The translations under genes and the position numbers were made by a program. Shown here piece by piece: positions 8,691-50,975 of a DNA stretch of 64,000 bases (the stretch's first letter is position 1; the number at the start of each line of letters is the position of its first letter). The notes under the pieces were generated by a model. It was not told where the DNA came from and ran no database searches. It saw only the letters and a list, made by a program, of their open reading frames with translations. This DNA is from Oscillospiraceae bacterium (GTDB lineage Bacteria; Bacillota; Clostridia; Oscillospirales; Acutalibacteraceae). The DNA lies in contig CADBQU010000019.1 in NCBI GenBank assembly GCA_902796905.1, positions 1 through 64,000 of the forward strand, read 5' to 3'.

Positions 8691-8774
8691 TTACGGCGAA
8701 AACCAAAGCCCTTTGGGCTTTGGCAAAAGCTTAAGCTTTTGCCCCAAAACTTTTGTTTTGGGTTTTCGCCGTAA
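8691..8774. repeat. multi-hairpin intergenic element A
   Basis: Perfect 14-bp outer stem (8691-8704 with 8761-8774, TTACGGCGAAAACC) encloses three adjacent hairpins: CCAAAGCCC-TTT-GGGCTTTGG (8703-8723), CAAAAGC-TTAA-GCTTTTG (8724-8741) and CCCAAAAC-TTTT-GTTTTGGG (8743-8762). There are essentially no unpaired bases between them. First of nine such elements in the window. It sits between the tRNA terminator and the fhs promoter. Confidence 0.85.
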
Positions 8775-8799
8775 AGCTGCTTTAACCGCTAACTTTATC

Positions 8800-8828
8800 T
8801 TGACAGTGTTGGGGGGTTATGGTATAAT
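8800..8828 (+). promoter_or_regulatory. sigma-A promoter of fhs
   Basis: Consensus TTGACA (8800-8805), 17-bp spacer, TATAAT (8823-8828). Transcription would begin just before the ZTP riboswitch. Confidence 0.88.
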
Positions 8829-8847
8829 CCGTTTAGAATAAAGCTTT

Positions 8848-8954
8848 TTGAAACTGGCGGATTAGTGGAGCACCACATGGATCAAAGAGTATTAAAAGTC
8901 GACCGTCTGGGCATACTTATCCTTTTATGGTTAAGTATGCCGTTTTTGTTTTTT
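8848..8954 (+). promoter_or_regulatory. ZTP (pfl-motif) riboswitch with intrinsic terminator
   Basis: The pfl-motif core is visible: ACTGGCGG (8853-8860), the hairpin GTGGAGCACCAC, and the conserved 3' element GACCGTCTGGGCA (8901-8913). The 3' end of the aptamer overlaps the left arm of a terminator, GGCATACTTA (8910-8919) with TAAGTATGCC (8932-8941), followed by a T-rich run. ZTP binding would stabilise the aptamer, block the terminator and turn on fhs when 10-formyl-THF is short. The mechanism is known for this RNA family. The position upstream of formate-THF ligase fits. Confidence 0.9.
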
Positions 8955-9055
8955 AAGTAAAGAACAAAAAAGAACAAAAAATAAAAAAATTTCGGCATTA
9001 AAAACACATAAACAAAAATCCGTAAAAAATACATAAATATAAGGAGAGATTTTAA

Positions 9056-10732
9056 TTGGCATATTTATCAGATATAGAAATTGCAGGTAAATGTAAATTA
9101 AAACCCATAACAGAAATAGCAAAAAGAGCAAATATTGATGAAAAGTATATAGAACTGTACGGAAGATATAAAGCTAAAGTAGACCTTTCAATTATGAAAG
9201 AAAACAAAAAGCCGTACGGAAAGCTTATTCTTGTAACTGCCATAACTCCCACTCCCGCAGGCGAGGGCAAAACCACCACTACCATAGGCCTGGCCGACGG
9301 TTTAAGCAGAATTGGCAAAAACGTTATGGTGGCGTTAAGAGAACCCTCTTTAGGTCCGGTTTTCGGAATAAAAGGGGGAGCCGCCGGCGGCGGATATGCG
9401 CAGGTTGTGCCTATGGAGGATATTAATCTTCATTTTACGGGCGATTTCCACGCAATAGGTGCCGCAAACAATTTACTTGCGGCAATGCTGGATAACCATA
9501 TAAAACAAGGTAACGAACTTAACATAGATGTTCGTAAAATAACCTGGAAACGCTGCGTGGATATGAATGACCGTCAGTTAAGAAATATTGTTGACGGTTT
9601 GGGGGGAACCGCTAACGGGGTACCCCGTGAAGACGGTTTTGATATTACCGTTGCCAGTGAAATAATGGCGGTACTTTGTCTTTCAAAATCCATTACCGAT
9701 TTAAAAAAAAGGCTTTCAAATATAATAGTAGGGTATACTTATAACGATGAGCCCGTAACCTGTGCCGACCTTAAAGCTCAGGGCGCTATGGCAGCGCTTT
9801 TAAAAGACGCATTAAAGCCTAACCTTGTACAAACTTTAGAAGGTACGCCGGCGCTGGTTCACGGCGGACCCTTTGCAAACATTGCTCACGGCTGCAACTC
9901 CGTAACCGCTACCGAATTGGCATTAAAGCTTGGCGATTATACCGTAACCGAAGCCGGTTTCGGAGCGGATTTGGGGGCGGAAAAATTTCTTGATATTAAA
10001 TGCCGCAAAGCGGGGCTTACCCCCAACGCAGTGGTAATGGTTGCCACTGTTCGCGCTCTTAAAATGCACGGCGGATTAAATATTAAAGACCTTAATACCG
10101 AAGATTTAAAAGCGCTTGAAAAAGGCATACCAAACCTTTTAAGGCATATTTCCAATATTAAAAATGTTTACGGTCTTCCTTGCGTTGTTGCAATAAACCG
10201 TTTTCCTACGGATACCGATAATGAAATAGATTTTATAATAAAAAAATGCAAAGAACTTGGGGTTAATGTGGTTCTTTCTACCGTTTGGGAAAACGGCGGT
10301 GCCGGCGGAGAAGAGTTGGCTAAAGAAGTGGTAAGGCTTTGCGAAAAAGAAAAAGCAAACTTTACTTTTAGCTACGAACTTAACAGCAGTATAGAAGAAA
10401 AAATAGAGGCTGTGGTAAAAAAGGTTTACGGCGGTAAGGGCATAAACATTTTACCTGCGGCTCAAAAGCAAATAAACAGGCTTACGGAGTTGGGATATAA
10501 AGAACTGCCCGTATGTATTGCCAAAACACAGTACAGTTTTTCGGATGACCCTTCTCTTTTAGGTGCGCCGGATAATTTTACCGTTACGGTAAAAAACGTT
10601 AAAATATCTGCCGGTGCAGGCTTTATAGTGGTTCTTACCGGAGATATTATGACAATGCCCGGTTTGCCTAAACATCCTGCGGCAGAAAATATAGATGTTG
10701 ATGAAACAGGTAAAATAACAGGACTTTTTTAA
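9056..10732 (+). CDS. fhs: formate-tetrahydrofolate ligase
   Basis: ATP-dependent enzyme joining formate to THF to give 10-formyl-THF for purine and fMet synthesis, and the first methyl-branch step in acetogens. The 558 residues equal the usual family length. The nucleotide site [13 protein letters not shown] lies near residues 64-76. The start is TTG 9056: AAGGAGAG (9041-9048) ends 7 nt before it and no ATG lies nearby. It is controlled by the ZTP riboswitch directly upstream. No other Wood-Ljungdahl genes are nearby, so a one-carbon supply role is more likely than acetogenesis. Confidence 0.96.
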
Positions 10733-10805
10733 AAAACACCGTAATATAAAAATTTATGTTTTAATACTTTTTGGGTAAAATAATAAAAAATCCGGAGGTA
10801 TTAAA

Positions 10806-11666: not shown

Positions 11667-11689
11667 ACGTTTTTAAAATAATAAAAAAA

Positions 11690-11702
11690 CCGCCAAAGGC
11701 GG
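11690..11702 (-). terminator. short hairpin with U-run on the minus strand
   Basis: CCGCC-AAA-GGCGG just after the recombinase gene. On the minus strand it is followed by seven Ts, so it could stop leftward transcripts coming from the inverted-repeat segment. Confidence 0.5.
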
Positions 11703-11710
11703 CTGATACG

Positions 11711-12003
11711 TAATTGTTATTATGTTGTAAATTTAATATAAAATAACTCTTTGTACATAGTAAATATAGCATAAAAAAATATTATTGTAAAGCATTTTAA
11801 ATAAAAAGCTGGTAAAAGAGTTAATTTTGTAGTAAAATAGGTATTAAAATAAAAGCCTTTACTTATAATAAAACGAAAAGGCTTGTTTTGGCATGAAATT
11901 TTTTGTATAAAATTTAAATTAATATAATTTTTTGTTTGTTATTATTACGTTAAATGTACTTTTGTATATTTAATTTAAAGTTTTTACAACATAATAACAA
12001 TTA
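11711..12003. other. candidate invertible DNA segment bounded by a 21-bp inverted repeat
   Basis: A perfect 21-bp inverted repeat (11711-11731 and 11983-12003) flanks 251 bp of AT-rich non-coding DNA. A third copy of the right-hand repeat core lies in direct orientation at 12018-12036. Each copy contains the imperfect palindrome CATAAT-aaca-ATTA(T/C)G, as expected of a recombinase crossover site with two half-sites. The segment lies directly downstream of a tyrosine recombinase and upstream of a GGDEF gene and contains a promoter-like sequence. Alternatively it is a MITE with TA ends or simply an RNA structure. The 495-bp gap 11667-12161 holds no gene. Confidence 0.5.
11763..11791 (-). promoter_or_regulatory. 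promoter-like sequence inside the inverted-repeat segment
   Basis: On the minus strand TTTACA (11786-11791), 17-bp spacer, TATATT (11763-11768). In the present orientation it points toward the 3' end of the recombinase gene. After inversion it would point toward the GGDEF genes. It sits in AT-rich sequence, so chance is possible. Confidence 0.4.
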
Positions 12004-12010
12004 TGAAGTA

Positions 12011-12046
12011 AAAACCGCAACATAATAACAATTATGTTGCGGTTTT
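12011..12046. terminator. strong hairpin built on the third copy of the inverted-repeat core
   Basis: A perfect 15-bp stem (12011-12025 with 12032-12046; arm AAAACCGCAACATAA) with a 6-nt loop and flanking A and T runs. It works as a terminator in both directions and incorporates the repeat core CAACATAATAACAATTATG. Confidence 0.7.
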
Positions 12047-12257: not shown

Positions 12258-12286
12258 ATGCGGCTCTTTCGTTTATTTCTTTTGTA

Positions 12287-14864: not shown

Positions 14865-14867
14865 AAA

Positions 14868-14947
14868 GGTAAAAGCCCCAAAAACAAAAATTGTTTTTGG
14901 AACAAAAGCGCAGCTTTTGTTAAAGCCTTTAGGCTTTGGCTTTTGCC
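14868..14947. repeat. multi-hairpin intergenic element B
   Basis: Outer stem GGTAAAAGCC/GGCTTTTGCC (14868-14877 with 14938-14947, one T-G pair). Inside are three touching hairpins: CCAAAAACAA-AAA-TTGTTTTTGG, AACAAAAGC-GCA-GCTTTTGTT and AAAGCCT-TT-AGGCTTT. Same architecture as element A, with different stems. Confidence 0.85.
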
Positions 14948-26417: not shown

Positions 26418-26504
26418 GCGGCGGCGAAAGCGTTATAAACGCTTTAAATTAAAAACAAAAATTGTTTTTAATTTGGGAACGCAAAAAGCGTTCCCCGCCG
26501 CCGC
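26418..26504. repeat. multi-hairpin intergenic element C
   Basis: GC-rich 9-bp outer stem GCGGCGGCG/CGCCGCCGC (26418-26426 with 26496-26504) holds AAAGCGTT-ATA-AACGCTTT, AAATTAAAAACAA-AAA-TTGTTTTTAATTT and GGGAACGC-AAAAA-GCGTTCCC. It lies in the 342-bp gap between the glycyl radical enzyme and the TIM-barrel gene. The rest of that gap holds the promoter and operator given separately. Confidence 0.85.
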
Positions 26505-32458: not shown

Positions 32459-33319
32459 TTAACATTCTTTTTTAACGTTAAAATTCTTTCTTCTTTTTGT
32501 TGAAATTCTCATAAGCCTTCGCATTTCTTCGCGGTTGGAATCCCGAACGGTGGAGTATAAACGGTCGAAAGCAATTTTAAAAGCGTCCATTTCTCTTAAA
32601 AGAGCCGTTTTGTTTTCAATAAAAAGTTCGCTCCACATTTCATCGTTTATGTTTGCTATTCGGGTTAAATCTCTAAAAGAATCTCCGGTGTAGCGCACCA
32701 ATGCGGGATTATCGTTTGCGCACATTAAAGATATTGCTATGCAGTGCGTAAGCTGTGATAGAAAAGCTATCATTTCATCGTGAGCTTCGGGAGAAAGAAC
32801 GGAAATATCCTTAAATCCCAAAACAGAGCCTAAATCTTTACAAACATTTATTGCTTTTTCGGTGTTTTTTTCTGTGGGAACCACTATGTAGTTGGCATTT
32901 TTAAAAATAGAACTGCTGCTGTATTTAACGCCGCAGGTTTCTTTACCTGCCATAGGGTGCGCCGCAATAAATTCCACGCCGCAGGGCAACATATTTTGTA
33001 TTTTTTTAACTATAGGCGTTTTAACGCCCGTAACGTCTGTTATAATGGTGTTTTTATTAATTAAATGACCGTTTTCTTTAATCCAATTTACAAATATGTG
33101 CGGATACAGTGCAAAGACAATAATATCTGCGTTTTTAATTAATTTTTCATCTATAAGCGTGGTACCGAAATCTATAATATTATGTTTTACGGCGTAATCA
33201 ATATCCTCTTGGTTTTTGGTTATGGCGGCTACTTTAAAGCCTTGCTTTTTTAAGGTTTTTGCGTAGCTTCCGCCTATAAGACCTAAACCTACTATTAAAA
33301 ATTTTGTGTTTTTATCCAT
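32459..33319 (-). CDS. tyrA: prephenate dehydrogenase
   Basis: 286 residues. An N-terminal Rossmann site GLGLIGGSYAK (residues 11-21) binds NAD, and the catalytic His lies in SQLTHCIAIS near residue 190. It oxidises prephenate to 4-hydroxyphenylpyruvate for tyrosine. It lacks fused chorismate mutase and ACT domains, so feedback must come from elsewhere, in line with the Tyr/Phe attenuator. Element D separates it from aroA. Confidence 0.93.
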   Translation of the reverse strand: MDKNTKFLIVGLGLIGGSYAKTLKKQGFKVAAITKNQEDIDYAVKHNIIDFGTTLIDEKLIKNADIIVFALYPHIFVNWIKENGHLINKNTIITDVTGVKTPIVKKIQNMLPCGVEFIAAHPMAGKETCGVKYSSSSIFKNANYIVVPTEKNTEKAINVCKDLGSVLGFKDISVLSPEAHDEMIAFLSQLTHCIAISLMCANDNPALVRYTGDSFRDLTRIANINDEMWSELFIENKTALLREMDAFKIAFDRLYSTVRDSNREEMRRLMRISTKRRKNFNVKKEC

Positions 33320-33406
33320 AAAAATTATCCTTTTTAAAAAATTAAACTAAAGCCGTTTAAAGTTTGTTTGGTTGTTTTATTTTTTGTTTTTAGTTTTTGT
33401 ATATTA

Positions 33407-33499
33407 GGGCTAAAAGCCCAAAGCCCGAAGGGCTTTACAAAAGCAAATGTTTGCTTTTGTTACTAAACAAAAAATTTTTGTTTAGTGGGCTTGCAGCCC
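33407..33499. repeat. multi-hairpin intergenic element D
   Basis: Outer arms 33407-33419 and 33487-33499 pair at 11 of 13 positions, and each arm can also fold alone (GGGCT-AAA-AGCCC and GGGCT-TGC-AGCCC). Between them: AAAGCCC-GAA-GGGCTTT, ACAAAAGCAAA-TG-TTTGCTTTTGT and ACTAAACAAAA-AAT-TTTTGTTTAGT. It lies inside the aro operon between aroA and tyrA and would be transcribed. Confidence 0.85.
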
Positions 33500-33507
33500 G
33501 TTGTTTT

Positions 33508-34776
33508 TTAATCTTTAAATTCTAAATCTACATTTAAATGCTGTAAATCTTTAAAAAAGTTGGGGTAGCTTTTATTTATTGCTTCCGCCCCTTTAATTTC
33601 TCCGCCCAGATATGTGCATAAAACGCTTAAACTCATAACTACGCGGTGGTCGTTATGACCGTAAAGAATTTCTTTTGGTGTTTTCAGTTGCGCTTTTGTT
33701 ACTTTTACGCTGTTTTTTAAAACCTTTATATCTGCTCCGAATTTTTTTAGTTCTTCTGCCATAACGTAGGCTCGGTTACTTTCTTTTAAGCTTAATCTTT
33801 CGGTATTTACAAAAACGGAACTGCCTTTTAAAGCCGCAAGCGTAAAGGCTATAGGCGCTAAATCCGGACAGTCTTTTAAATCTATTTCTTCAAAACTGTT
33901 TTTTAAAATTTTGTTAAAAATTTCGGTATAAATTTTATCTCCCTGCAGGGAATTTTTATTTAATCCCGTAATATTTACTTTTCCGCCTAAAATATTTAAA
34001 GCTTCTAAAAAAGCCGCGTTTGAATAATCGCCTTCGCAAGTTAACTTTTTGCTTTTGTAAAGGCTGCTTAAAACGGTAATTGTTTTTTTGTGCGGGCTAA
34101 ATTCCGTTTTTATTCCGAATGTGTTTAAGGCGCTTAAAGTTAGGTTAATATAAGAAAAACTTGTGATTTCCTTTGTTAATTTAAGCGTTGCGAAAATTTT
34201 GCGATTTTTTTCATTTTCATTTTTATTTTTATTTTCATTGATAAAATTATTTAAAAACGGCATTATAAAAAGCATACCGCTTATAAATTGACTGGATTTA
34301 TTTGCGCTTAACGAAAATTCGGTTTGGCTTAAATTCCCCTTTACAGTAAGAGCAGTGTCTTTTTGGTTTAAGTTAAAATAAATATTATTTTGCCGGGCTA
34401 ATTCTTCATATTCGTTTAAAGGGCGTTCAAAAAGTCTTTCTTTGCCGCAAAAGGTAATTTCTTTGTTTGCAATAAAAGCTATCGGTATTAAAAATCTTAA
34501 AGTGCTTCCGCTTTCGTTACAGTAAAGAACGGATTTTTCTTTTATGTTTTTAATATTAAGTCCGCCTATTGTAACGGTGGAATCGTTAATATCCACAGTA
34601 GCGCCCAGAGCTTTAAGGCAGTTTACCGTAGCGGTTATATCTTCCGAAAAAGCTATATTTTTTATTACGCTTTTTTTTGTAAATGCTCCGCAAATAAGCA
34701 AACGGTGCGTTACGCTTTTAGAAGGCGGTGCATTAACGGTGCCGACTGCCTTTTTTGGTTTAAATAAAACGGTCAT
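33508..34776 (-). CDS. aroA: 5-enolpyruvylshikimate-3-phosphate synthase
   Basis: 422 residues in two inside-out barrel domains. NAPPSKSVTHRLLICGAF near residues 17-34 holds the S3P-binding Ser-Lys-Ser and the Arg. SGSTLRFLIP (residues 89-98), ECEGDYSNAAF and KESNRAYVM are further landmarks. It joins shikimate-3-phosphate and PEP. A lysine/asparagine-rich insert (ENKNKNENEKNRK near residue 181) is unlike other members. It sits between aroQ and tyrA. Confidence 0.95.
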   Translation of the reverse strand: MTVLFKPKKAVGTVNAPPSKSVTHRLLICGAFTKKSVIKNIAFSEDITATVNCLKALGATVDINDSTVTIGGLNIKNIKEKSVLYCNESGSTLRFLIPIAFIANKEITFCGKERLFERPLNEYEELARQNNIYFNLNQKDTALTVKGNLSQTEFSLSANKSSQFISGMLFIMPFLNNFINENKNKNENEKNRKIFATLKLTKEITSFSYINLTLSALNTFGIKTEFSPHKKTITVLSSLYKSKKLTCEGDYSNAAFLEALNILGGKVNITGLNKNSLQGDKIYTEIFNKILKNSFEEIDLKDCPDLAPIAFTLAALKGSSVFVNTERLSLKESNRAYVMAEELKKFGADIKVLKNSVKVTKAQLKTPKEILYGHNDHRVVMSLSVLCTYLGGEIKGAEAINKSYPNFFKDLQHLNVDLEFKD

Positions 34777-34852
34777 TTGTATTTCTCCGTAATTTGTTAT
34801 TTGTAATTTGGTATTTGTTATTTAAATTCTTTGATTTTTGTTTTTGTTAAAA

Positions 34853-35356
34853 TTATTTGTTTTTGCCGTTTTCGTAGCTTAAAAGCTGCTGTAAAAAGCT
34901 TAAAGCTTCCAAATATCCGTTTGCACCTTTTCCGAATATGGTTTTTACACAGGCAGCTCTTATAAAACTTTTTTGTCTAAAATCTTCTCTTTTGGAAATA
35001 TCGGATAAATGTACCTCCACAGTGGGAATACCTACGGCTTTAACGGCGTCCAGTATGGCTACGCTTGTGTGTGTATATGCCGCCGGATTTATAATTATAC
35101 CGTTGTAGTTTTTATAGCAATCTTGAATTTCGTCTACCAAAACGCCTTCGCTGTTAGATTGTACAATTTTTAAATCTATACATTTTTCTTTTGCGTATTC
35201 TTCTGCTTTTTTGCATAAGTCTTTATATGTTTCTTTACCGTAAATATCCGGTTCTCTTATGCCTAACATATTTAAATTGGGTCCGTTTATAATTTTAATC
35301 TTAATTTTTTCATTGGTTTCGTTTTTTTTTTTTTTTTTGGTTTTACGGTCGGTCAT
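34853..35356 (-). CDS. aroQ: 3-dehydroquinate dehydratase, type II
   Basis: 167 residues. NGPNLNMLGIREPDIYG carries the catalytic Tyr, and HTSVAILDAVKAVGIPTVEV the active-site His. The first 20 residues (RKTKKKKKNETNEK) are an unusual basic extension encoded by a 17-nt A-run (35322-35338). No alternative in-frame start follows the run, so translation must pass it. The ATG overlaps the end of aroE-aroK by 14 bp. Confidence 0.93.
   Translation of the reverse strand: MTDRKTKKKKKNETNEKIKIKIINGPNLNMLGIREPDIYGKETYKDLCKKAEEYAKEKCIDLKIVQSNSEGVLVDEIQDCYKNYNGIIINPAAYTHTSVAILDAVKAVGIPTVEVHLSDISKREDFRQKSFIRAACVKTIFGKGANGYLEALSFLQQLLSYENGKNK
35322..35338. repeat. 17-nt homopolymer inside the aroQ start region
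   Basis: T17 on the plus strand, A17 in the coding strand, covering codons 7-12. Gain or loss of one base would shift the frame of aroQ. Confidence 0.85.
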
Positions 35357-36668
35357 TTAAAAACGCTTCCTTTATATTTTTTAGTTCGTTTGAAAAATTA
35401 TTATCACATAAAACTTCTTTTTCGGCGTATTTTTTATAAAGCGATTTTCTTTTGTTAAAAATATTTTCAAAATCTTTTGCTGTTTTTGTAAGCGGACGTT
35501 CGGGGTTTTTATTTTCGCTTTTTTCTTTGTTTGAATTTTCGGCTTTATTATTGTTAATGTTTTTAATTATTAATTCAACGGGACGGTTTAAATAAATTAT
35601 TTTTCCGTTTTGTTTTAAATAAAGAATATTATTGGGATTTAATACGGCTCCGCCGCCGGGGGCAATTACCGAATTGTTTTTTAAAGAAAGCTGTTTTAAT
35701 ATTAAAGTTTCTTTGGCTCTGAAAGCTTCTTCGCCTTCGGTTTTAATTATTTCGGCAGGCGTTTTGTTATATGCTTTTTCTATTTCTTTGTCGCAGTCAA
35801 AAAAATCTTTGTTAAGCTCTTTTGCAACCTTTAAACCTAATGTGGTTTTACCGCTTCCCGGCATACCTATTAAAACCAAGTTTTGTTTTTGTTTTAATAA
35901 TTTGCCGTAAACTTCGTATGTTTTTTTATTTTCGTTTTCGTCTTTGTCGGCTTCGTTAAAAAACAGCTCGTTCGATTTTGCCGCCTGAGAAACCAGCATA
36001 AAAAGTCCGTTGGAAGTTTTAATGTTTTTTTCTTTGGCTTTTAAAGTTAATAATGTGTGCAGCGGATTATAAATAACATCTACTACCGCTTCTAAATTAT
36101 TAAAATTATCCGTATTTAAAGGAGAATTAAAATTATTCGGAAACATACCTACGGGAGTGGTATTTATAATTATTTCGGCGTTACTGTATTTTTTTTCGGC
36201 TTGCGGATATGTTATATATCCGTCTTCTTCTTTTTTATGTCTGGATACGATTAATATTTTTTTTGCTTCTAAATTTTTTGCAACTTCTTTTGCCGTTAGA
36301 GAGGTTCCGCCGCTGCCTAAAATTAAAACGGTTTTATTTTTTAAAGTTATATTATTGTATATTATTGTGTTTTTTAAACCATAAAAATCGGTGTTAAATC
36401 CCAAAAGCTTACCGTTTTTATTAACTACCGTATTTACCGCGCCTATGTTTTGGGCATAAATATCAATTTCGTCTAAATATTCCATTACGGCTTTTTTATA
36501 GGGAATGGTAACGTTTAAGCCTTTGTAGTTTTTATTAAGCACAAAGCTTTTCAGTTCGTTTTCGTTAAGTTCTTTGTAAAAATAATTATTGTTGCCTAAC
36601 ATATTATGTATTTCTTTAGAAAAACTGTGCTTTAAAGTTTTACCTAAAAGATAAAAAGTATTTTCCAT
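35343..36668 (-). CDS. shikimate dehydrogenase - shikimate kinase fusion (AroE-AroK)
   Basis: 441 residues. The N-terminal part (1-255) is shikimate dehydrogenase: LLGKTLKHSFSKEIHN opens it, with NVTIPYKKAV (catalytic Lys) and GSGGTSLTAKEVAKN (NADP site). The C-terminal part (265-441) is shikimate kinase with Walker A GMPGSGKTTLGLKVA and GGGAVLNPNN. It catalyses two steps of the pathway. ATG 36668 overlaps the aroC stop (TAATG); an in-frame codon at 36722 lies inside aroC and is not used. The kinase part contains a Lys/Asn/Glu-rich insert near residue 385. Fusions of this pair are rare but known. Confidence 0.92.
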   Translation of the reverse strand: MENTFYLLGKTLKHSFSKEIHNMLGNNNYFYKELNENELKSFVLNKNYKGLNVTIPYKKAVMEYLDEIDIYAQNIGAVNTVVNKNGKLLGFNTDFYGLKNTIIYNNITLKNKTVLILGSGGTSLTAKEVAKNLEAKKILIVSRHKKEEDGYITYPQAEKKYSNAEIIINTTPVGMFPNNFNSPLNTDNFNNLEAVVDVIYNPLHTLLTLKAKEKNIKTSNGLFMLVSQAAKSNELFFNEADKDENENKKTYEVYGKLLKQKQNLVLIGMPGSGKTTLGLKVAKELNKDFFDCDKEIEKAYNKTPAEIIKTEGEEAFRAKETLILKQLSLKNNSVIAPGGGAVLNPNNILYLKQNGKIIYLNRPVELIIKNINNNKAENSNKEKSENKNPERPLTKTAKDFENIFNKRKSLYKKYAEKEVLCDNNFSNELKNIKEAFLNDRP

Positions 36669-37774
36669 TATAAAGCCATCCAATCGGTGCCGTATTTTAA
36701 CGTTAAAATATCCGCTATGCAAAATGCCGTTAAACTTTTAATTACTATATTTGCACGGGGAACTATAGAGGGGTCGTGCCTTCCTTTACAAATAAGAGTT
36801 TCTTCTTTTTTTGTTTTTAAATTAAGTGTTTTTTGCGGATAGGATATTGTGGGCGTAGGTTTTAAAACTACCGAAAAAACTATGGGCATACCGTTTGAAA
36901 TTCCGCCGTTTATTCCGCCGTTGTTGTTTGTGGCGGTTACAACTTCGTTTTGAGAATTTAATGTAAAACAGTCGTTGGCTTCGCTGCCTAAAATATTTGC
37001 AAAATCAAAGCCCTTGCCGAATTGTATGCCCTTTACTGCCGGAACAGAAAACAAAGCGTGAGAAACCGTGCTTTCTATACTGTCAAACCATGGCTCGCCG
37101 GCGCCTCTCGGCATACCTAAAACCGCGGTTTCTATAATGCCGCCCACACTGTTTCCGTTTTCTTTTGCTTTTTTAATTTCGTTTTCCATTTTTTCTTTTG
37201 CGGAGCTGTTTATAACCGCAAAAGCTTTATCTTCAAGATTTTCTATTTGCTCTTTTAATGTATTGGTGTTTTCGCTGAATTTGCTTTCTTTAACGGCTTT
37301 AATACTTAAAATATGCGAACCTATTAAAATACCTTTTCTTTTTAGCGCCGGCAGAATAATTCCGCCTAAAGCGGCTATGGGAGCGGTTAATCTTCCGCTG
37401 AAATGGCCTCCGCCGTTTAAATCGGCAAAACCGTTATATTTAACCGAAGATACATAATCCGTATGTCCCGGACGGGGAATATCTTCAAACTGACTGTAGT
37501 CGCTTCCTCGAACGTCTTTATTTTCTATTCTTAAAAGAATAGAACTGCCGGTAGAAAATCCGTTTTTAACGCCGCTTTCAATAAAAAGCTCATCCGCTTC
37601 TTTTCTTGAAGTGCCTATATCTTTTTTGGGTTTTCTTAAATCAAGGCATTTATTTATATATTCCGTGTTTATGGGAATTCCGGCAGGCAAGCCGTCTAAA
37701 ACCAAACCTACGCTTTTGCCGTGGCTTTCGCCGAAAATGGTAATATTTAAAGCATTTCCGAAAGAGTTTTTCAT
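36668..37774 (-). CDS. aroC: chorismate synthase
   Basis: 368 residues. FMN-dependent last step making chorismate. Motifs GESHGKSVGLVLDGLPAG (residues 15-32), RPGHTDYV and GGHFSGRLTAP are the usual signatures. The start overlaps the aroB stop by one base, and the stop overlaps aroE-aroK, so translation is coupled. Length and sequence are normal. Confidence 0.96.
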   Translation of the reverse strand: MKNSFGNALNITIFGESHGKSVGLVLDGLPAGIPINTEYINKCLDLRKPKKDIGTSRKEADELFIESGVKNGFSTGSSILLRIENKDVRGSDYSQFEDIPRPGHTDYVSSVKYNGFADLNGGGHFSGRLTAPIAALGGIILPALKRKGILIGSHILSIKAVKESKFSENTNTLKEQIENLEDKAFAVINSSAKEKMENEIKKAKENGNSVGGIIETAVLGMPRGAGEPWFDSIESTVSHALFSVPAVKGIQFGKGFDFANILGSEANDCFTLNSQNEVVTATNNNGGINGGISNGMPIVFSVVLKPTPTISYPQKTLNLKTKKEETLICKGRHDPSIVPRANIVIKSLTAFCIADILTLKYGTDWMAL

Positions 37775-38784
37775 TAAAAAGCTTCCTCCAATAAGTTTTC
37801 TATATTTTTTATATCGGTTTCTTCTATTTCATAAGTTCCTATTTTGTTTACTTTAACAATGCTTATTTTATTTCCGTAAGCTTTTTTATCGTGTTTTACG
37901 GCTTCTTTTAATTGGCTTTTGTTTATGCTTATATTATTTAGCAAATTTAAATGTTCAAGTACTTTTAAAAGTTTTGGTTTAACTTCTTCGCCGCACATGG
38001 GTATCATACCTATTGCTACGCATTCGCCGTGGTAAAGTTCGTTAAAGCTTTCGGCGCTTTCTATGGCGTGTGCTATTGTATGGCCGAAATTTAAAACCTT
38101 TCTTTCGCCGTTTTCAAATTCGTCTTTTTCCACTACGGCTTTTTTTATAAGTAAAGATTTACAAATTATTTCTTCTGTTTTTTCTTCTTTAAACTGTTCG
38201 TTGTTTAAAAATATATTAAAAAGTTCTTCGTTATGGGTTAAAGACATTTTTATGGATTCTACCATACCGCAAATAATTTGGCGTTTGGGTAAAGTGCTTA
38301 AAACTTCTGTATCTATAAGCACTGCCGAAGGCTGCCAAAAAGCGCCTACAATATTTTTATATCCGCAAAAATCTATAGCGGTTTTTCCGCCTATGGAACT
38401 GTCTACCATAGATAAAAATGTAGTGGGGACATTATAAAAATCAATGCCTCGCATATAACTTGCCGCCGAGAAACCGGAAATATCTCCCACAACTCCGCCG
38501 CCTACCGCCACAATGCAGTCTTTGCGGGTAAAATTGTTGGTTGTAAGGGTTTTTAAAATTAAAATGTAATTATCTATATTTTTGCTTTCTTCGCCTTGAG
38601 GAATTGTTAAAATTAAGCCCTGTTTGCATTGGTCCAGTATTGTTTTACTGTATTTTTCGGGCACACCGCTATCGGTTACAATTAAAACCTTACGGTTTAA
38701 ATTAAAATATTCTTTTGCGTTTTTTAATTCGCCTTTTTTAATAATAATATTGTAGTTTTTAAATTTTGTTTTTACGGAAATCAC
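37774..38784 (-). CDS. aroB: 3-dehydroquinate synthase
   Basis: 336 residues. NAD-dependent cyclisation of DAHP. The NAD site VAVGGGVVGDISGFSAASYM lies near residues 93-112; DSSIGGKTAIDF and the metal ligands in NFGHTIAHAIES and HGECVAIGM (His) are present. First of the tightly overlapped aroB-aroC-aroEK-aroQ set. Element E lies upstream. Confidence 0.96.
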   Translation of the reverse strand: MISVKTKFKNYNIIIKKGELKNAKEYFNLNRKVLIVTDSGVPEKYSKTILDQCKQGLILTIPQGEESKNIDNYILILKTLTTNNFTRKDCIVAVGGGVVGDISGFSAASYMRGIDFYNVPTTFLSMVDSSIGGKTAIDFCGYKNIVGAFWQPSAVLIDTEVLSTLPKRQIICGMVESIKMSLTHNEELFNIFLNNEQFKEEKTEEIICKSLLIKKAVVEKDEFENGERKVLNFGHTIAHAIESAESFNELYHGECVAIGMIPMCGEEVKPKLLKVLEHLNLLNNISINKSQLKEAVKHDKKAYGNKISIVKVNKIGTYEIEETDIKNIENLLEEAF

Positions 38785-38839
38785 GGTTTACATACCTCCG
38801 GTTTTTATTTTTATCTTTACTTTATTTTTGTTTTTTGTG

Positions 38840-38930
38840 CGGGGCTTAAAGCCCCAAAGTCCTTTGGACTTTGGCAAAAGCTTTGCTTTTGCGCCGAAAA
38901 ACTTTCAGGTTTTCGGCGGCTTTAAGCCCG
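38840..38930. repeat. multi-hairpin intergenic element E
   Basis: Outer stem CGGGGCTTAAAGCC with GGCTTTAAGCCCG (38840-38853 with 38918-38930). Inside: CCAAAGTCC-TTT-GGACTTTGG, CAAAAGC-TTT-GCTTTTG and a 12-bp stem CGCCGAAAAACT-TTC-AGG with one mismatch. Lies between pheA and aroB within the operon. Confidence 0.85.
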
Positions 38931-38980
38931 ATATGGTTTTAGCTTTGTTTTGTTACTTTTAATGCCGTTTTAATGCTGTT

Positions 38981-40069
38981 TTATTTTAATGTTATTTCTT
39001 TGTTGTATACGCCTATAATTTTAACGCTGTTGCAGTGTTTTTTAAGCTCATCTATCATTTCTTTGCCGTTAGGAGTGTTTATATTTCCTTCGCCTTCGGC
39101 AAAAAAGTAATAGCTCCAAACGCTGTCTTTGGAAGGGCGGCTTTTTAAAGAGCGTAGGTTAAATCCAAAAGAACCTATAACCGATACCGCTTTGCCTAAG
39201 GCTCCCGCTTCGTTTTTAACCGTAAAGCACATAATAAAATTATTTTTGTTTTCGGTTTGTGCGGCGCTTCTCGAAAATACCGCAAAACGTGTGGTGTTGC
39301 CCTCGGCGGAATTTATATGAGATTCTATTTTTATAAGACCGTATTTTTCCGCAGCTTCTTCACTGGCAATAGCGGCAATATCCGGTTTGTTAAGCTTTAA
39401 AACTTTTTGAGCGGCTAAAGCTGTGTTTTCGGCTTCTATAACCTGTAAGTTATGTTTTTTAATAAACGCGGCGCATTGGCCTAATGCCTGAGGATGGCTT
39501 ATTACCTTTGTAACGCTTTCCAAAGATGCCCCTTTAATTCCCAATAAATTTTGTACAATTAAAATATCGTAAATTCCCGTAACGGATAAAGAACCCGAAA
39601 AAGCCAAATCCATAACGGCGCCGACATCTCCGTTGTAGCTGTTTTCCAAAGGTAAAACGGCACAGTCGCATTCTCCGTTTTCCACAGCTTTATAAGCGGA
39701 AGAAAAATCGGCGTAGCCTAAAGTTTCGGCATTTTTAAAAATTTTGTTTGCGGCTATTTGTGCAAAAGCACCTTCTACGCCGCTAAACGCAATCCTTAAC
39801 CCTTTGCATAAATTTCTTTGATAAGCTTTGCTTATTTTCATGGTGTTTTTTAAAAACTGCGTATAAAACCCGGTATAATTTTTGTTTTTAATTAAACGGC
39901 AGTTCTTTTTTATAACTTTTTCCTCGCGTGATTCGTCTAAAATAGGCAAAGCGTTTTTAATTTTGTATTCCGCTACCTTTTTAACTTCGTCCATACGCTT
40001 TTCAAAAAGTTCCGCCATAAGCTTGTCTATTTTATCAATTTCTTTTCTGGTACTCTCAATATCGCTCAT
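38981..40069 (-). CDS. pheA: bifunctional chorismate mutase / prephenate dehydratase
   Basis: 362 residues. Chorismate mutase (AroQ class) covers residues 1-85, with the RKEIDKIDKLMAELFEKRMD helix. Prephenate dehydratase spans 95-275 with GVEGAFAQIAA and NSAEGNTTRFAVF (catalytic Thr-Arg-Phe). An ACT domain follows (278-355) with EAGALGKAVSVIGSFGFNL and the ligand-binding LKSRPSK loop, so phenylalanine feedback is expected. The ATG at 40081 is in frame but GGAG lies 6 nt before ATG 40069. First structural gene after the attenuator. Confidence 0.94.
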   Translation of the reverse strand: MSDIESTRKEIDKIDKLMAELFEKRMDEVKKVAEYKIKNALPILDESREEKVIKKNCRLIKNKNYTGFYTQFLKNTMKISKAYQRNLCKGLRIAFSGVEGAFAQIAANKIFKNAETLGYADFSSAYKAVENGECDCAVLPLENSYNGDVGAVMDLAFSGSLSVTGIYDILIVQNLLGIKGASLESVTKVISHPQALGQCAAFIKKHNLQVIEAENTALAAQKVLKLNKPDIAAIASEEAAEKYGLIKIESHINSAEGNTTRFAVFSRSAAQTENKNNFIMCFTVKNEAGALGKAVSVIGSFGFNLRSLKSRPSKDSVWSYYFFAEGEGNINTPNGKEMIDELKKHCNSVKIIGVYNKEITLK

Positions 40070-40128
40070 ATAAATCTCCATATCTTTTTAAACTTTTAAA
40101 ATTTTTGTTTTTTTATTTGGTTTGCACC

Positions 40129-40213
40129 GCGGCGGTTTTAAAAGGCTTTGCCTTTTAAACGCAAAAGAATTTTGCGTTTTTTAAAACCTTTGGTTTTAAA
40201 AAAAACGCCGCCG
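40129..40213. repeat. multi-hairpin intergenic element F
   Basis: Imperfect outer stem (CGGCGG-TTTT near 40130-40139 with AAAACGCCGCCG at 40202-40213). Inside: AAAAGGC-TTT-GCCTTTT, AAACGCAAAA-GAA-TTTTGCGTTT and TTAAAACC-TTT-GGTTTTAA. It sits in the pheA leader, after the attenuator and before the start codon. Confidence 0.8.
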
Positions 40214-45626: not shown

Positions 45627-45656
45627 ATAATATTTAATAATATTATGTAATTTACT

Positions 45657-45731
45657 GCGACAGGCTCTCCAAAAAACAATATTTGTTTTTCGGGGGCAAA
45701 AGCAAAGCCCGCAGGGCTTTGAGCCTGTCGC
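45657..45731. repeat. multi-hairpin intergenic element G (partly lost)
   Basis: Perfect 11-bp outer stem GCGACAGGCTC/GAGCCTGTCGC (45657-45667 with 45721-45731). Inside are AAAAACAA-TAT-TTGTTTTT and CAAAGCCC-GCA-GGGCTTTG. Between them GGGGGCAAAAG is the left half of a CAAAAGC hairpin whose right half is missing, so this copy looks partly deleted. Confidence 0.8.
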
Positions 45732-45810
45732 TGAAAAGAATCAAAAACAACAGAAAAACTATAGAAAAAGCAATAGAAAAAACAAAACAAAACGGAGCAG
45801 TAATAAGCCG

Positions 45811-46596
45811 ATGCCAAAATTTTTTGTTGAAGAATTTAACGGTGTTTTAACGGATGCCGACGCCAAACATATAGAAAAGTCTTTAAGAATGAAACCGGGA
45901 GAAGAGGTTACGGTTTGCGATGACGGAGGAACCGACCATTTTTGTGTTATAGAAAAAATACTTCCGGGAAAGATTTTTTTAAAAGAAATAAAAAAAGAAA
46001 AATGCAAAAATGAAGCGAATATTAATTTAACCCTTTATATTTGTTTTTTAAAAGGCGAAAGCTTAGGCAACGTTATAAAACACGCTACGGAATTAGGGGT
46101 AAATACAATAGTGCCGGTGTTATCGGAATTTTGCGTAAGCAGACCTAAAATTCAGGACTACGCCAAAAAAACCGAAAGGTATCAAAAAATAGCCGAATCT
46201 GCCGCAAAACAAAGCGGAAGAGGTATTATACCTAAGGTTTTATATCCTATAGATATTAAAGATGTACCTAAAAATACCGTAATGTTTTACGAGCACGGCG
46301 GAAAACCCATAAAAGAAATATTAAAAGAGATAGATTGTATTTGTAACAATAACAACAATAACAGCAGTAACACCGGCGATAATGTTAAAAGCAGTGATTT
46401 TAAAGAACAAAAAGATATAAAAAAAGATACGAAAAAAGATATATCTGTATTAATAGGCAGCGAGGGCGGATTTTCGGAAAAAGAGGCGGAACAATTTAAA
46501 TATAAGGCTACTTTAGGCAAAAGAATTTTAAGAGCCGAAACCGCACCGCTTGCGGCTGTTACCTGCATTATGCTTTTAACCGGAAATTTAGAATAG
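45811..46596 (+). CDS. rsmE: 16S rRNA m3U1498 methyltransferase RsmE
   Basis: 261 residues. An N-terminal PUA-like domain is followed by a SPOUT knot. FLKGESLGNVIKHATELGV and IGSEGGFSEKEAEQF plus the C-terminal RILRAETAPLAAVTCIMLL are the SAM-site segments. It carries a non-conserved insert of Asn, Ser and Lys near residues 180-207. Lies between elements G and H, upstream of pth. Function well supported. Confidence 0.93.
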   Translation: MPKFFVEEFNGVLTDADAKHIEKSLRMKPGEEVTVCDDGGTDHFCVIEKILPGKIFLKEIKKEKCKNEANINLTLYICFLKGESLGNVIKHATELGVNTIVPVLSEFCVSRPKIQDYAKKTERYQKIAESAAKQSGRGIIPKVLYPIDIKDVPKNTVMFYEHGGKPIKEILKEIDCICNNNNNNSSNTGDNVKSSDFKEQKDIKKDTKKDISVLIGSEGGFSEKEAEQFKYKATLGKRILRAETAPLAAVTCIMLLTGNLE

Positions 46597-46597
46597 C

Positions 46598-46673
46598 GCC
46601 AAGCCCCCAAAAACAAAATTGTTTTTGGGCAAAAGCAAAGCTTTTGCCAAGCCCGAAGGGCTTTGGGCTTGGC
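46598..46673. repeat. multi-hairpin intergenic element H
   Basis: Outer stem GCCAAGCCC/GGGCTTGGC (46598-46606 with 46665-46673) starts two bases after the rsmE stop. Inside: CCAAAAACAA-AA-TTGTTTTTGG, GCAAAAGC-AAA-GCTTTTGC and AAGCCC-GAA-GGGCTT. Confidence 0.85.
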
Positions 46674-46711
46674 ACCCGTAACCACAAAATACAAACAAAA
46701 AGGAAATAAAA

Positions 46712-47390: not shown

Positions 47391-47423
47391 AAAAATCAAA
47401 TAAAAATCAAATAAAAATCAAAT
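47391..47423. repeat. tandem 11-bp repeat before mfd
   Basis: AAAAATCAAAT repeated three times with a partial fourth. AT-rich, between pth and mfd. Could arise by slippage. Confidence 0.7.
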
Positions 47424-47466
47424 AAAAATTTTACGGTGCAAACTATAATAAAATAATAGGTTAAAA

Positions 47467-50400
47467 ATGAATATAGCAGAATATTTTAAAACTACAAAAA
47501 CTTATAAAAACATAAATACAAAAAAAGAATATCCTATAGAAATCAACGGATTAAATCCGGCGGCAAAAGCTTTGATTATTGCTTCAAACGATAATAAAAG
47601 CTTTGTTTTTTGCGCCGAGGCGGCAGAGGCTTCAAAATTAACCGAAAGCCTTAAAAGTTTGGGCAAAAAAGCTTTTTATTTAACGGCGAGAGATTATATT
47701 TTAAGGGATATAAACGGTTTTTCTAAAGAATACGAACAAAAAAGAATAAATGTTTTAAATAAAATTATAACCGATGAATACGATGCTGTAATTTTAGATG
47801 CCGAAGCGTTAACGCAAAAATTTCCAAACAAAGAGTATTTAATACAAAATACAATTAATATAAAATCCGAAGAAGAAACGGATTATACAAATTTAATAAA
47901 AAGGCTCTCCGATTTGGGCTACAGCCTAAGCTTGGAGGTAGAAGGCGTAGGTCAATTTTCCTGCAGAGGAGATATTTTGGATATTTATGCCGTAGGAGAA
48001 GAATATCCCGTAAGAATTGAATTTTTCGGAGATTTTATTGAAAAAATAAGCTATTTTTCAATAGAAACCCAAAGGCGTAAAGAAAGCATAAAAAAACTTA
48101 CCGTTTTACCTAATACCGAGCAGCAAATACCAAATGCCGAGGAATTAAAAAAGTTTGCCGACGGTATAAAAACTAAAAATCAAAAGTTTTTTGATACAAT
48201 AGAAAACGATATTGAAGAAAATAAATTTAATACCGACAGATATATGGCTTTTTATAATTTTAAGCCCGTAACGGTTTTTGATTATATAGGCAAAAACAAT
48301 ACGGTTTTTATTGACGAGCTTAATAATATTAAAGGCAGACTTAAAGCGTTAAACGATATACGCGCAGAAGATAAAACCATGCTTACAACCGATGGCTTTT
48401 TAAGCAAAAAAACCGATTGCTTTTATATTTCAAAAACAGAAGTTTTTAAATATTTACAACCGTTTAATATTATTTATTTAGACGCTTTTTTGGCAAACAA
48501 AACCGAAATACCGCCTAAAAATTTAATTTCCTTAAATTTTAAAACTTTAAATTGTTGGACGGGCTCTTTAGACGCACTTATAGCGGATATAAAAGAATAT
48601 AACGCAAAAACCGCAATAATATTAATGTCAAGCGAAAAATCGGCGTTACTTTTAAAAGAATCGCTTTTAAGCAACGGTATAAGCGCGGAGTATAAAACGG
48701 TTTTGGAAAAACAAAACGGAAAAGTTGTTATAACTTTGGGTTCTTTGCCGCAGGGGATATATATAAAAGAGGATGATATTTTAATAATTTCTCAAGGCAA
48801 TTATATGCGCAAGCCCCAAAAGAAAAAATTTAAAAAAGGCAAAGCCATAAATAATATAGAAGAGCTTAAAGTAGGGGATTATGTAGTACATTATTCTCAC
48901 GGAATAGGAAAATTTTTAGGAGTTCATCAGTTAAAGAATAACGGCATAATAAAAGATTATATTAAAATTCAGTACCGCGGAAGCGATGTGCTTTATGTTC
49001 CGGTAACACAACTTGATTTGGTATCGAAATATATAGGCAATGCGGATGAAAGCCGTATAACTTTAAATAAGTTAGGCGGTACGGAATGGCAAAAGGCCAA
49101 AACGAAGGTTAAAGCTGCAGTTAAAGATATGGCTAAGCAATTGGCAAAGCTGTATGCAAAAAGAATGAACGAAAAAGGTTACGGCTTTTTGCCGGATACT
49201 ACCATGCAAAACGATTTTGAGGACCGTTTTGAATACGAGGAAACATTTGACCAATTAAGAGCGGCAACCGAAATAAAAAAGGATATGGAAAGAAAAATTC
49301 CCATGGACCGACTTCTTTGCGGAGATGTTGGATTCGGGAAAACAGAAGTAGCATTAAGAGCCGCTTTTAAATGTGTGGATAACGGTAGGCAGTGCGCCAT
49401 TTTGGTTCCTACAACATTATTGGCTAACCAGCATTATGCCACCTGCTTAAAACGTTTTTACGGTTTTCCCGTTAATATAGAAGTTTTAAGCCGTTTTAAA
49501 ACCAAAAAACAATTGGAACAGAGCTTAAAAAATATTAAACGCGGCACGGCGGACATTGTTATAGGTACCCACAGAATGATATCCAAAGATGTTGTTTTTA
49601 AAGATTTGGGACTTTTAATAATAGATGAAGAGCAACGCTTTGGAGTAGCGCAAAAAGAAAGGCTTAAAGAGCTTTTTCCTACAGTTGATATTTTAACGCT
49701 TTCGGCTACGCCTATTCCCAGAACTTTAAATATGGCTATGAGCGGACTAAGGGATATGTCAAGTATAGAAGAAGCACCTATAGACCGCCGACCGGTGCAA
49801 ACCTTTGTTTTAGAGCAAAATAACGGTATTTTAGCCGAAGCCATACGAAAAGAATTAAGAAGAGGCGGACAGGTTTTTTACATTCATAACCGTATAGACA
49901 GTATTTTTCAGGTAGCTTCAAGACTTTCGGAAATGCTGCCGGATGTTAGAATAGGCGTGGCACACGGAAGAATGAGCGAAGAAGAATTATCGGGAATATG
50001 GCAAAGCTTACTGGAACAAAAAATAGATGTTTTGGTATGCACCACCATAATAGAAACGGGTGTGGATGTTGCAAATGCCAACACTTTAATAGTAGAGGAT
50101 GCCGACCGTTACGGTTTGGCTCAATTGCATCAAATAAGAGGAAGAGTAGGAAGAAGTCCCAGAAGGGCTTACGCTTATTTTTGTTTTAGAAAAAACAAAG
50201 AATTAAGCGAAATTGCTTCGAAAAGATTAGACGCTATAAGAGAGTTTACGGAGTTTGGTTCGGGCTATAAAATAGCTATGAGAGATTTGGAGATAAGAGG
50301 CGCCGGAAACATTTTGGGCAGCGAACAGCACGGTCATATGGAAGCCGTAGGCTATGATATGTATATAAAGCTTTTAAAACAGGCGGTAGACGAAGAAACG

Positions 50401-50847
50401 GGAGAAAGCAAAACCAAAGAAAAGCTTGAATGTACTGCCGATTTAAATATAAATGCCAGCATACCGGAAAGCTACATTCCTTTTATAACCGCAAGGCTTG
50501 GTATTTATAAAAAAATAGCGGATATAAGAAGTACGGAAGACGCAAACGATGTAAAAGAAGAATTGGAAGACCGTTTCGGACCTATTCCGAAAGATGTTTT
50601 GGGATTAATAGACGTGGCGTTAATACGCGGAGTTGCCGCTAAAAACGGTATATATGAAATAGTACAAACCAAAAATGTTATAAAAATGAGCATTAAAAAT
50701 TTAGATATGCAAAAAGCTACGGAAATTTGTCAAAAAATAGGCAAAAACGCAAGTCTTTCTTTGGGTGAAAACCCTTGCTATTTAATAAAAGTAGAGAAAA
50801 ACGAAATGCCTTTGGAGGTTTTAAAACGCATTTCGGAAGTACTTTAA
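47467..50847 (+). CDS. mfd: transcription-repair coupling factor Mfd
   Basis: 1126 residues. DNA translocase that removes stalled RNA polymerase and recruits UvrA. The N-terminal UvrB-homology part spans residues 1-340. The RNA polymerase-interacting domain (VGDYVVHYSHGIGKFLG near 472) is followed by an SF2 helicase core with Walker A LLCGDVGFGKTEVALRAAF (about 617) and DEEQRF (about 720), and the TRG motif region with RIGVAHGRMSEEEL. The C-terminal TRCF domain ends at about 1110. Length is normal. Confidence 0.96.
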   Translation: MNIAEYFKTTKTYKNINTKKEYPIEINGLNPAAKALIIASNDNKSFVFCAEAAEASKLTESLKSLGKKAFYLTARDYILRDINGFSKEYEQKRINVLNKIITDEYDAVILDAEALTQKFPNKEYLIQNTINIKSEEETDYTNLIKRLSDLGYSLSLEVEGVGQFSCRGDILDIYAVGEEYPVRIEFFGDFIEKISYFSIETQRRKESIKKLTVLPNTEQQIPNAEELKKFADGIKTKNQKFFDTIENDIEENKFNTDRYMAFYNFKPVTVFDYIGKNNTVFIDELNNIKGRLKALNDIRAEDKTMLTTDGFLSKKTDCFYISKTEVFKYLQPFNIIYLDAFLANKTEIPPKNLISLNFKTLNCWTGSLDALIADIKEYNAKTAIILMSSEKSALLLKESLLSNGISAEYKTVLEKQNGKVVITLGSLPQGIYIKEDDILIISQGNYMRKPQKKKFKKGKAINNIEELKVGDYVVHYSHGIGKFLGVHQLKNNGIIKDYIKIQYRGSDVLYVPVTQLDLVSKYIGNADESRITLNKLGGTEWQKAKTKVKAAVKDMAKQLAKLYAKRMNEKGYGFLPDTTMQNDFEDRFEYEETFDQLRAATEIKKDMERKIPMDRLLCGDVGFGKTEVALRAAFKCVDNGRQCAILVPTTLLANQHYATCLKRFYGFPVNIEVLSRFKTKKQLEQSLKNIKRGTADIVIGTHRMISKDVVFKDLGLLIIDEEQRFGVAQKERLKELFPTVDILTLSATPIPRTLNMAMSGLRDMSSIEEAPIDRRPVQTFVLEQNNGILAEAIRKELRRGGQVFYIHNRIDSIFQVASRLSEMLPDVRIGVAHGRMSEEELSGIWQSLLEQKIDVLVCTTIIETGVDVANANTLIVEDADRYGLAQLHQIRGRVGRSPRRAYAYFCFRKNKELSEIASKRLDAIREFTEFGSGYKIAMRDLEIRGAGNILGSEQHGHMEAVGYDMYIKLLKQAVDEETGESKTKEKLECTADLNINASIPESYIPFITARLGIYKKIADIRSTEDANDVKEELEDRFGPIPKDVLGLIDVALIRGVAAKNGIYEIVQTKNVIKMSIKNLDMQKATEICQKIGKNASLSLGENPCYLIKVEKNEMPLEVLKRISEVL

Positions 50848-50892
50848 AGCTATTTATAAATATTTAATTTTGGTTTTAGTTGGTTGCAAAAC

Positions 50893-50975
50893 GGCGGTTT
50901 AGGCAAACCTTTGGTTTGCCGACGCCGAAAGCTTTGCTTTCGGCGTTAAAAAGGCAAAGCCTTTTTAAAACCGCC
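50893..50975. repeat. multi-hairpin intergenic element I
   Basis: Outer stem GGCGGTTT/AAACCGCC (50893-50900 with 50968-50975) encloses GGCAAACC-TTT-GGTTTGCC, ACGCCGAAAGC-TTT-GCTTTCGGCGT and TAAAAAGGC-AAA-GCCTTTTTA, all with 3-nt loops and one base or fewer between stems. Lies between mfd and fruK. Confidence 0.9.

What the first reader, a model, noticed from the sequence alone, without database searches (positions are those of the whole stretch)
8691..50975. Nine intergenic multi-hairpin elements share an architecture, not a sequence
Elements A-I (8691, 14868, 26418, 33407, 38840, 40129, 45657, 46598, 50893) each have an outer stem of 8-14 bp enclosing usually three hairpins placed back to back, mostly with exactly 3-nt loops. 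Stem sequences differ between copies, yet almost every base pair is kept, so the structure is what is conserved. Copies lie only between genes, about one per 7 kb, in both orientations and within operons. I know no named repeat family with this layout. Roles could include mRNA processing or 3'-end protection, a nucleoid protein target, or a non-autonomous mobile unit.
Basis: seen in the sequence. Interest (0 to 1): 0.85.

Follow-up and report, generated by a model that had tools for sequence, protein, structure and literature searches.

The report
Shape-keeping cloverleaf repeats in a bacterium
One bacterium's genome carries well over a hundred short repeats, mostly between genes, that are predicted to fold into the same three-hairpin clover shape while their letters differ; they are likely a mobile DNA unit whose hairpin halves are rewritten together by copying slips, which would make them a natural test case for how DNA replication keeps hairpins intact.

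Summary
The elements are real. In 572,985 of 1,639,278 bases of this Clostridia-type genome it finds 139 three-hairpin elements, one two-hairpin and one four-hairpin. They are dispersed copies of a few sequence families plus a tandem-array type, so "not a sequence" is too strong. Pairing is at the DNA level: 3757 of 3798 pairs are Watson-Crick, G.T is no commoner than A.C (8, 9), loops face either way (A-rich 113, T-rich 102 on the sense strand; hairpins independent, 179/186). Copies found by sequence alone stay folded in 58 of 66 cases at about 80% identity. Seven congeners show none by BLAST or in sampled stretches; 10 syntenic gaps in relatives are empty. Another genus of the family has a sequence-unrelated MITE-like repeat with the same layout, with matches in 13 of 29 species. 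Best reading: MITE-like mobile DNA forming a four-way junction, arms likely homogenised and loops inverted by replication template switching. RNA roles are not supported. None of three transposase/RT domains searched was found; no clear target-site duplication.

The parts
8690..8775 (-). Element A: outer stem 13 bp, hairpins of 9, 7 and 8 bp; first sequence family (strand = arm order relative to L106:8824)
   Evidence: between tRNA 8540-8613 and ZTP riboswitch 8840-8919
14868..14947 (+). Element B, first sequence family
26418..26504 (+). Element C, third sequence family; downstream of a PFL-like gene
33408..33498 (-). Element D, first sequence family; detector core 33414-33492
38842..38929 (-). 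Element E, first sequence family; one mismatch in one hairpin; in the aromatic amino-acid gene cluster
40129..40211 (-). Element F, second sequence family (strand = arm order relative to element I)
45656..45732 (+). Element G: degenerate copy, outer stem and two hairpins, middle hairpin lacks its 3' half
46596..46675 (+). Element H, first sequence family, between an RNA methyltransferase (RsmE-type) and a peptidyl-tRNA hydrolase gene; gap has no element in 6 congeners
50891..50977 (+). Element I, second sequence family

Best explanation
These repeats are dispersed copies of short DNA units predicted to fold, strand by strand, into a near-perfect four-way junction (one outer stem, almost always exactly three hairpins); they are likely non-autonomous mobile elements, and their arms are likely kept complementary by replication template switching, which would copy one arm onto the other and flip the loops. 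Shown by calls: copy number, three-hairpin count (139 of 141), near-perfect Watson-Crick complementarity without G.T excess, two-sided changes, balanced and independent loop orientation, persistence of complementarity in diverged copies, absence from syntenic gaps of relatives, and the same layout in a sequence-unrelated repeat of another genus. Inferred: that copies spread by transposition of the folded unit using an enzyme not yet found; that template switching, not selection on each copy, restores pairing; that the apparent lack of the hairpin nuclease subunit SbcD helps.
For: 139 three-hairpin elements against 1 two- and 1 four-hairpin in 572,985 b, 0 in shuffles. 3757/3798 pairs Watson-Crick, G.T 8, A.C 9; further set 1217/1224, G.T 0, A.C 1. 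At 90-95% stem identity 355 two-sided against 44 one-sided differences. In families put in one orientation A-rich against T-rich loops per hairpin are 28/28, 32/24, 34/24 (first family) and 11/6, 10/9, 8/11 (second), none significant; hairpins of one element are independent, 179 same and 186 different; loops and their reverse complements both occur, e.g. AAA/TTT 7/11, 9/8, 15/12. Sequence-only retrieval: 58 of 66, 56 of 65, 18 of 20 and 46 of 53 places pass the structural detector, whereas random substitution at 10% leaves 21 of 312 detectable. Arm homogenisation plus spacer inversion is the published signature of template switching (PMC8604942 abstract and section 6; PMC8794818 abstract and passages). 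Congeners: BLAST 0 of 7, and none in 264 kb; RsmE-Pth gap 118 nt here, 29-35 nt in 6 congeners; 10 syntenic pairs, 0 with an element, 9 with a shorter gap. Genus of G131: a repeat of about 117 bp, TATAGTTAACGCA..TGCGTTTACTATA, with three hairpins, matches in 13 of 29 genomes, 1-56 each; G131 itself had no match to model R1.
Against: No consistent target-site duplication: the best of 392 registers tried has 4 matches in 87 against 0.4 by re-pairing; TA at both ends 12 of 87 against 8.3 expected from the margins. No Y1, RVT_1 or DDE_3 domain in the genome; other transposase families were not searched. SbcD is not found here but also not in 3 congeners, which show no elements in their sampled stretches. 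Template switching alone does not explain why the hairpin number stays at three. Some loop classes are lopsided on small counts (first family TAAA/TTTA 0/3 in hairpin 1, GAA/TTC 0/3 in hairpin 2; second family AAA/TTT 5/1 in hairpin 2; AAAA/TTTT 10/3 on the sense strand). Only one genome of the species was available, so no rewriting event was seen directly. First-family copies lie with flanking co-directional genes in 27 and against in 13 cases, a weak bias.
Confidence: 0.55

Rival explanations
1. The copies act as RNA: transcribed cloverleaves that end, protect or process mRNA, and selection keeps each fold.
For: They are near stop codons (median 30 nt in 39 co-directional gaps), 3' arms are T-rich in both senses, and the first family is oriented with genes 27 to 13.
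Against: Sense-strand G.U 5 against A.C 4 and loops 113/102; rRNA loops are strongly one-sided (GAAA 99 times UUUC, PMC8794818 passages). Also in divergent gaps, 12 of 93, in rough proportion to their length.
Confidence: 0.13
2. An old dispersed repeat no longer moves; copies are immobile and only template switching in place shapes them.
For: No domain of three helper families, few near-identical copies (29 pairs with 95% or more of stem pairs alike), no consistent duplication.
Against: Seven congeners show none of the main family by BLAST nor any three-hairpin element in sampled stretches, so spread is probably later than the genus or was lost in all seven; syntenic gaps are empty.
Confidence: 0.2
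3. Binding sites of a junction-binding chromosomal protein, kept at each site by selection.
For: Tight four-way junction, one per 4-8 kb, strand-symmetric.
Against: Not found in congeners; stem sequences vary; not tested directly.
Confidence: 0.07
4. Assembly or amplification artefact of a draft genome.
For: Draft of 53 contigs; arrays sit near the start of contigs 24, 38 and 47.
Against: Families with BLAST E to 1e-26 at many loci, in the window beside core genes; same layout in independent genomes of another genus.
Confidence: 0.02

Closest known systems
Bacterial MITEs (Correia/NEMIS, ERIC, RUP and others; PMC2229807, first of three parts read)
   Same: Under 200 bp, mostly intergenic, terminal inverted repeats, many copies; the repeat of G131's genus has TA at its ends
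   Different: Exactly three hairpins in a tight four-way junction; no consistent target-site duplication found; stems vary with pairing kept; loops flip; no partner transposase found among the domains searched
Mitochondrial repetitive hairpin elements / double-hairpin elements (PMC2800124, abstract and sections 20, 22, 23 read)
   Same: Intergenic, lineage-specific, hairpins kept while loops vary; triple hairpins reported in Igernella; Allomyces elements lack flanking duplications
   Different: Bacterial chromosome; stems vary by paired changes rather than staying identical; fixed three-hairpin junction
REP / REPIN elements with RAYT transposases (PMC3733652, abstract read)
   Same: Palindromic, intergenic, high copy, species-specific families
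   Different: No Y1 transposase domain found in this genome; three different hairpins inside an outer stem
Template-switch hairpin evolution (PMC8604942 abstract and section 6; PMC8794818 abstract and passages)
   Same: Arm homogenisation, multibase paired changes, spacer inversion
   Different: There single events in genes; here a whole high-copy repeat family looks saturated

Membership tests
Bacterial MITE | short (<200 bp), multicopy, mostly intergenic | tested here: met
   64-111 bp, median 85, 139 copies in 572,985 b; 19 of 93 overlap an ORF of a crude caller
Bacterial MITE | terminal inverted repeats | tested here: met
   outer stem in every detected copy, by the detector's own rule
Bacterial MITE | target-site duplication | tested here: not met
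   no consistent register in 87 copies; best of 392 registers 4 against 0.4
Bacterial MITE | TA at the termini | tested here: inconclusive
   24 and 30 of 87 against 9% background; both ends 12 against 8.3
Bacterial MITE | mobilising transposase with matching ends | tested here: inconclusive
   PF01797, PF00078, PF13358 not found; others not searched
REP/REPIN | RAYT (Y1) transposase in the genome | tested here: not met
   PF01797 not found; rings in 5 of 14 control genomes
REP/REPIN | unpaired GTAG or CGTC tag at one end | not tested
   -
Template-switch maintained hairpins | arm homogenisation (paired changes exceed one-sided) | tested here: met
   355 against 44 at 90-95% identity; 58 of 66 sequence-found copies fold
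Template-switch maintained hairpins | spacer (loop) inversion | tested here: met
   both senses in the same oriented hairpin
Template-switch maintained hairpins | observed parent-to-child event | not testable with these tools
   one genome of the species held
Structured cis-RNA | G.U tolerated on the sense strand more than A.C | tested here: not met
   5 against 4 in 77 elements
Structured cis-RNA | known Rfam family | tested here: not met
   only a tRNA and a ZTP riboswitch reach the gathering score in the window

The most novel reading that the evidence does not exclude
A mobile element whose heritable identity is a shape, not a sequence: the folded four-way junction is what is recognised and copied, while template switching keeps rewriting the letters of its stems and loops, so that unrelated sequences carry the same element.
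Probability: 0.3. Interest if true: 0.92.

Novelty: new variant of a known kind. Interest (0 to 1): 0.72.

Why it matters
Paired changes in stems are usually read as proof of a selected RNA structure. Here many paired changes come with strand symmetry and balanced loop inversion, so a mutational process is the simpler cause; a covariation-based RNA search could well call these functional RNAs. With some 200-400 copies per genome (extrapolated) they would let template switching be measured in a living lineage, and they show a three-hairpin four-way-junction layout shared by sequence-unrelated repeats in two genera.

Tried and rejected
Rejected: chance folding (shuffles 0); RNA element (strand tests). 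Searched and negative: Y1, reverse transcriptase and DDE_3 helper domains; consistent target-site duplication; matches in plasmids, phages or viral contigs, with one element or one pattern of each repeat.

Led nowhere: the covariance models R1 and R2 took a poor RNAalifold structure from the MAFFT alignments (R1 lacks the first hairpin); R1 serves as a sequence-weighted probe only, and no search was made with R2. R1 in 150 family and 394 order genomes found, beyond G000, 2 and 2 weak single hits; only the top 29 or 11 candidates per genome were scored, so weak families could be missed. Of those hits L141 (G015) folds into three hairpins by RNAfold with a bulged outer stem, but the detector finds none in 176,932 b of G015; L142, L180 and L181 do not show the layout. 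The ORF caller used for context is crude; 19 of 93 elements overlapped a called ORF and were set aside, some probably spurious ORFs. The sense-strand counts use 77 of 139 elements (co-directional flanks only). The clustering and the oriented loop counts use the first 104 elements only. Of 16 loci of the G131-type repeat 15 were used for the 6-of-15 count; L301, a partial match, was dropped. Eight paper searches, seen as listings, showed no bacterial repeat with this layout; the library holds open-access papers only.
Full report
What is there. The window is part of contig 19 of a 1.64-Mb, 53-contig genome; the window is 33% G+C. Its formate-tetrahydrofolate ligase is up to 83% identical to those of unnamed Clostridia genomes, many from animal guts and rumen by their titles. 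I wrote a detector that asks only for an outer stem enclosing hairpins placed end to end, with Watson-Crick pairs so that both strands count equally. The ninth, 45657, has an outer stem and two hairpins, but only the 5' half of the middle one.

How many. In the window and 20 stretches of the genome (417,900 b; the stretches lay on contigs with BLAST hits, so density is biased up) there are 104 three-hairpin elements; one shuffle gave none. In 155,085 b from 12 further contigs, none of which was in the capped hit list (three were hit), there are 35. At score 20 or more the two sets hold 139 three-hairpin, 1 two-hairpin and 1 four-hairpin structures; at lower thresholds two-hairpin structures appear in real and shuffled sequence alike (24 real, 13 in three shuffles, while three-hairpin ones are 96 real and 0 shuffled). 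Extrapolated, the genome holds some 200 (window density) to 400 (all sampled stretches) copies. Elements are 64-111 bp, median 85. In 32 of the 104 no base is unpaired at the junction and in at least 40 more only one is: a tight four-way junction.

Kinship. The copies are not unrelated: clustering 104 of them by arms gives families of 62, 19 and 6 copies, two leaf types (7 and 4) of tandem arrays with a period of about 160 bp, and 6 singletons. Dispersed copies tend to end TTA(A/C)GG..CC(T/G)TAA.

Pairing is kept at the DNA level. Of 3798 stem positions 3757 are Watson-Crick; G.T (8) is no commoner than A.C (9), which are the same mismatch seen from the two strands. The further set gives 1217 of 1224, with 0 G.T and 1 A.C. 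On the sense strand of co-directional genes (77 of 139 elements) G.U is 5 and A.C 4. The detector itself demands pairing, so these totals are partly by construction; the G.T to A.C ratio is not. Between copies of 90-95% stem identity 355 differences are two-sided and 44 one-sided; these cells are not independent and come from a set found by structure. The test without that bias is to find copies by sequence: with four queries 58 of 66, 56 of 65, 18 of 20 and 46 of 53 places (overlapping sets) pass the structural detector at 80-82% median identity. Random substitution at 5% leaves 113 of 312 detectable, at 10% 21 of 312.

Loops. In families put into one orientation by arm order, a hairpin carries A-rich and T-rich loops about equally: 28/28, 32/24, 34/24 in the three hairpins of the first family and 11/6, 10/9, 8/11 in the second, none significant. 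Loops and their reverse complements both occur: AAA/TTT 7/11, 9/8, 15/12 in the first family and 5/3, 5/1, 8/8 in the second; TAAA/TTTA 7/4, CAAG/CTTG 2/2, GAA/TTC 5/3, with some lopsided small classes such as GAA/TTC 0/3 in hairpin 2. The sense of a loop is independent of the other loops of the same element (179 same, 186 different) and of the reading direction of the genes (A-rich 113, T-rich 102; AAAA/TTTT alone is 10/3). Inversion of short spacers together with homogenised arms is what template switching between inverted repeats does (PMC8604942, abstract and section 6). Template switching has been proposed to create and maintain hairpins (PMC8794818, abstract and passages); there, rRNA loops are strongly one-sided, GAAA being 99 times commoner than UUUC. 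The loop counts here are the opposite. I therefore read the paired changes as largely mutational in origin. This step is inference: no event between parent and child was seen.

Mobility. BLAST of a consensus hits G000 only among 8 genomes of the genus, and 264 kb from seven congeners hold no three-hairpin element. The RsmE-Pth gap is 118 nt here and 29-35 nt in six congeners (to the first aligned Pth residue), none with an element (in the seventh the locus shows Pth only). Of 97 element-flanking gene pairs 10 were found side by side in relatives' loci, 0 with an element, 9 with a shorter gap, one longer (aligned gaps, not exact intergenic lengths). No consistent target-site duplication was seen, and no Y1, RVT_1 or DDE_3 domain was found. 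SbcD, a subunit of the nuclease that cuts DNA hairpins in E. coli (role recalled), is not found here (97% complete) nor in three congeners, and is found in four: at most a permissive factor.

Elsewhere. In 2.95 Mb of other genomes' loci (some overlapping, mostly short samples) the detector at score 20 or more finds 10 rows: one AT-rich four-hairpin structure, and nine from one other genus (G131 and its kin, two rows being the same copy). There a repeat of about 117 bp, TATAGTTAACGCA - three hairpins - TGCGTTTACTATA, has matches in 13 of 29 genomes, 1 to 56 each, and most of the 15 copies looked at fold the same way, some with broken stems. Its sequence is unrelated by our probe: G131 had no match to R1. 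It behaves like an ordinary decaying MITE: 6 of 15 copies pass the detector, against 58 of 66 here (p = 0.0002; the two sets were fetched differently). So the layout recurs, and what is special to this genome is the rewriting. G015 gave one similar fold and nothing in 176,932 b.

Verdict. A lineage-specific, high-copy, MITE-like cloverleaf DNA element whose stems are fluid but complementary. Shown: anatomy, numbers, strand symmetry, loops in both senses, persistence of complementarity, empty gaps in relatives. Inferred: folding in the cell, transposition, template switching as the cause, any role of SbcD loss. Open: why exactly three hairpins, and why the 5' arms of hairpins are A- and C-rich (A 1893, C 975, G 559, T 277).

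Noticed in passing
L099:9014-9660, L089:13780-14010, L108:13-78, L107:15-80 (G000): Tandem arrays with units of about 160 bp alternating two different three-hairpin leaves, with linkers TATAATGTTC and TCCATTGAA; some lie at the start of contigs 24, 38 and 47 and may break the assembly.
   Followed up: partly
G131 and genus, L242:1830-1945 and L289-L304: A three-hairpin MITE-like repeat of about 117 bp, TATAGTTAACGCA..TGCGTTTACTATA, with matches in 13 of 29 genomes of that genus.
   Followed up: partly
hairpins of all 139 elements: 5' arms are A- and C-rich (A 1893, C 975, G 559, T 277); unexplained, and the same on both strands because the hairpins are palindromic.
   Followed up: no
G000 and congeners: SbcD (TIGR00619) is not found in G000, G002, G003, G007 but is in G001, G004, G005, G006.
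   Followed up: no
8840-8919: ZTP riboswitch upstream of formate-tetrahydrofolate ligase.
   Followed up: no
32459-40081: Aromatic amino-acid gene cluster (prephenate dehydrogenase, EPSP synthase, dehydroquinate synthase, chorismate mutase-prephenate dehydratase) with two elements between its genes.
   Followed up: no
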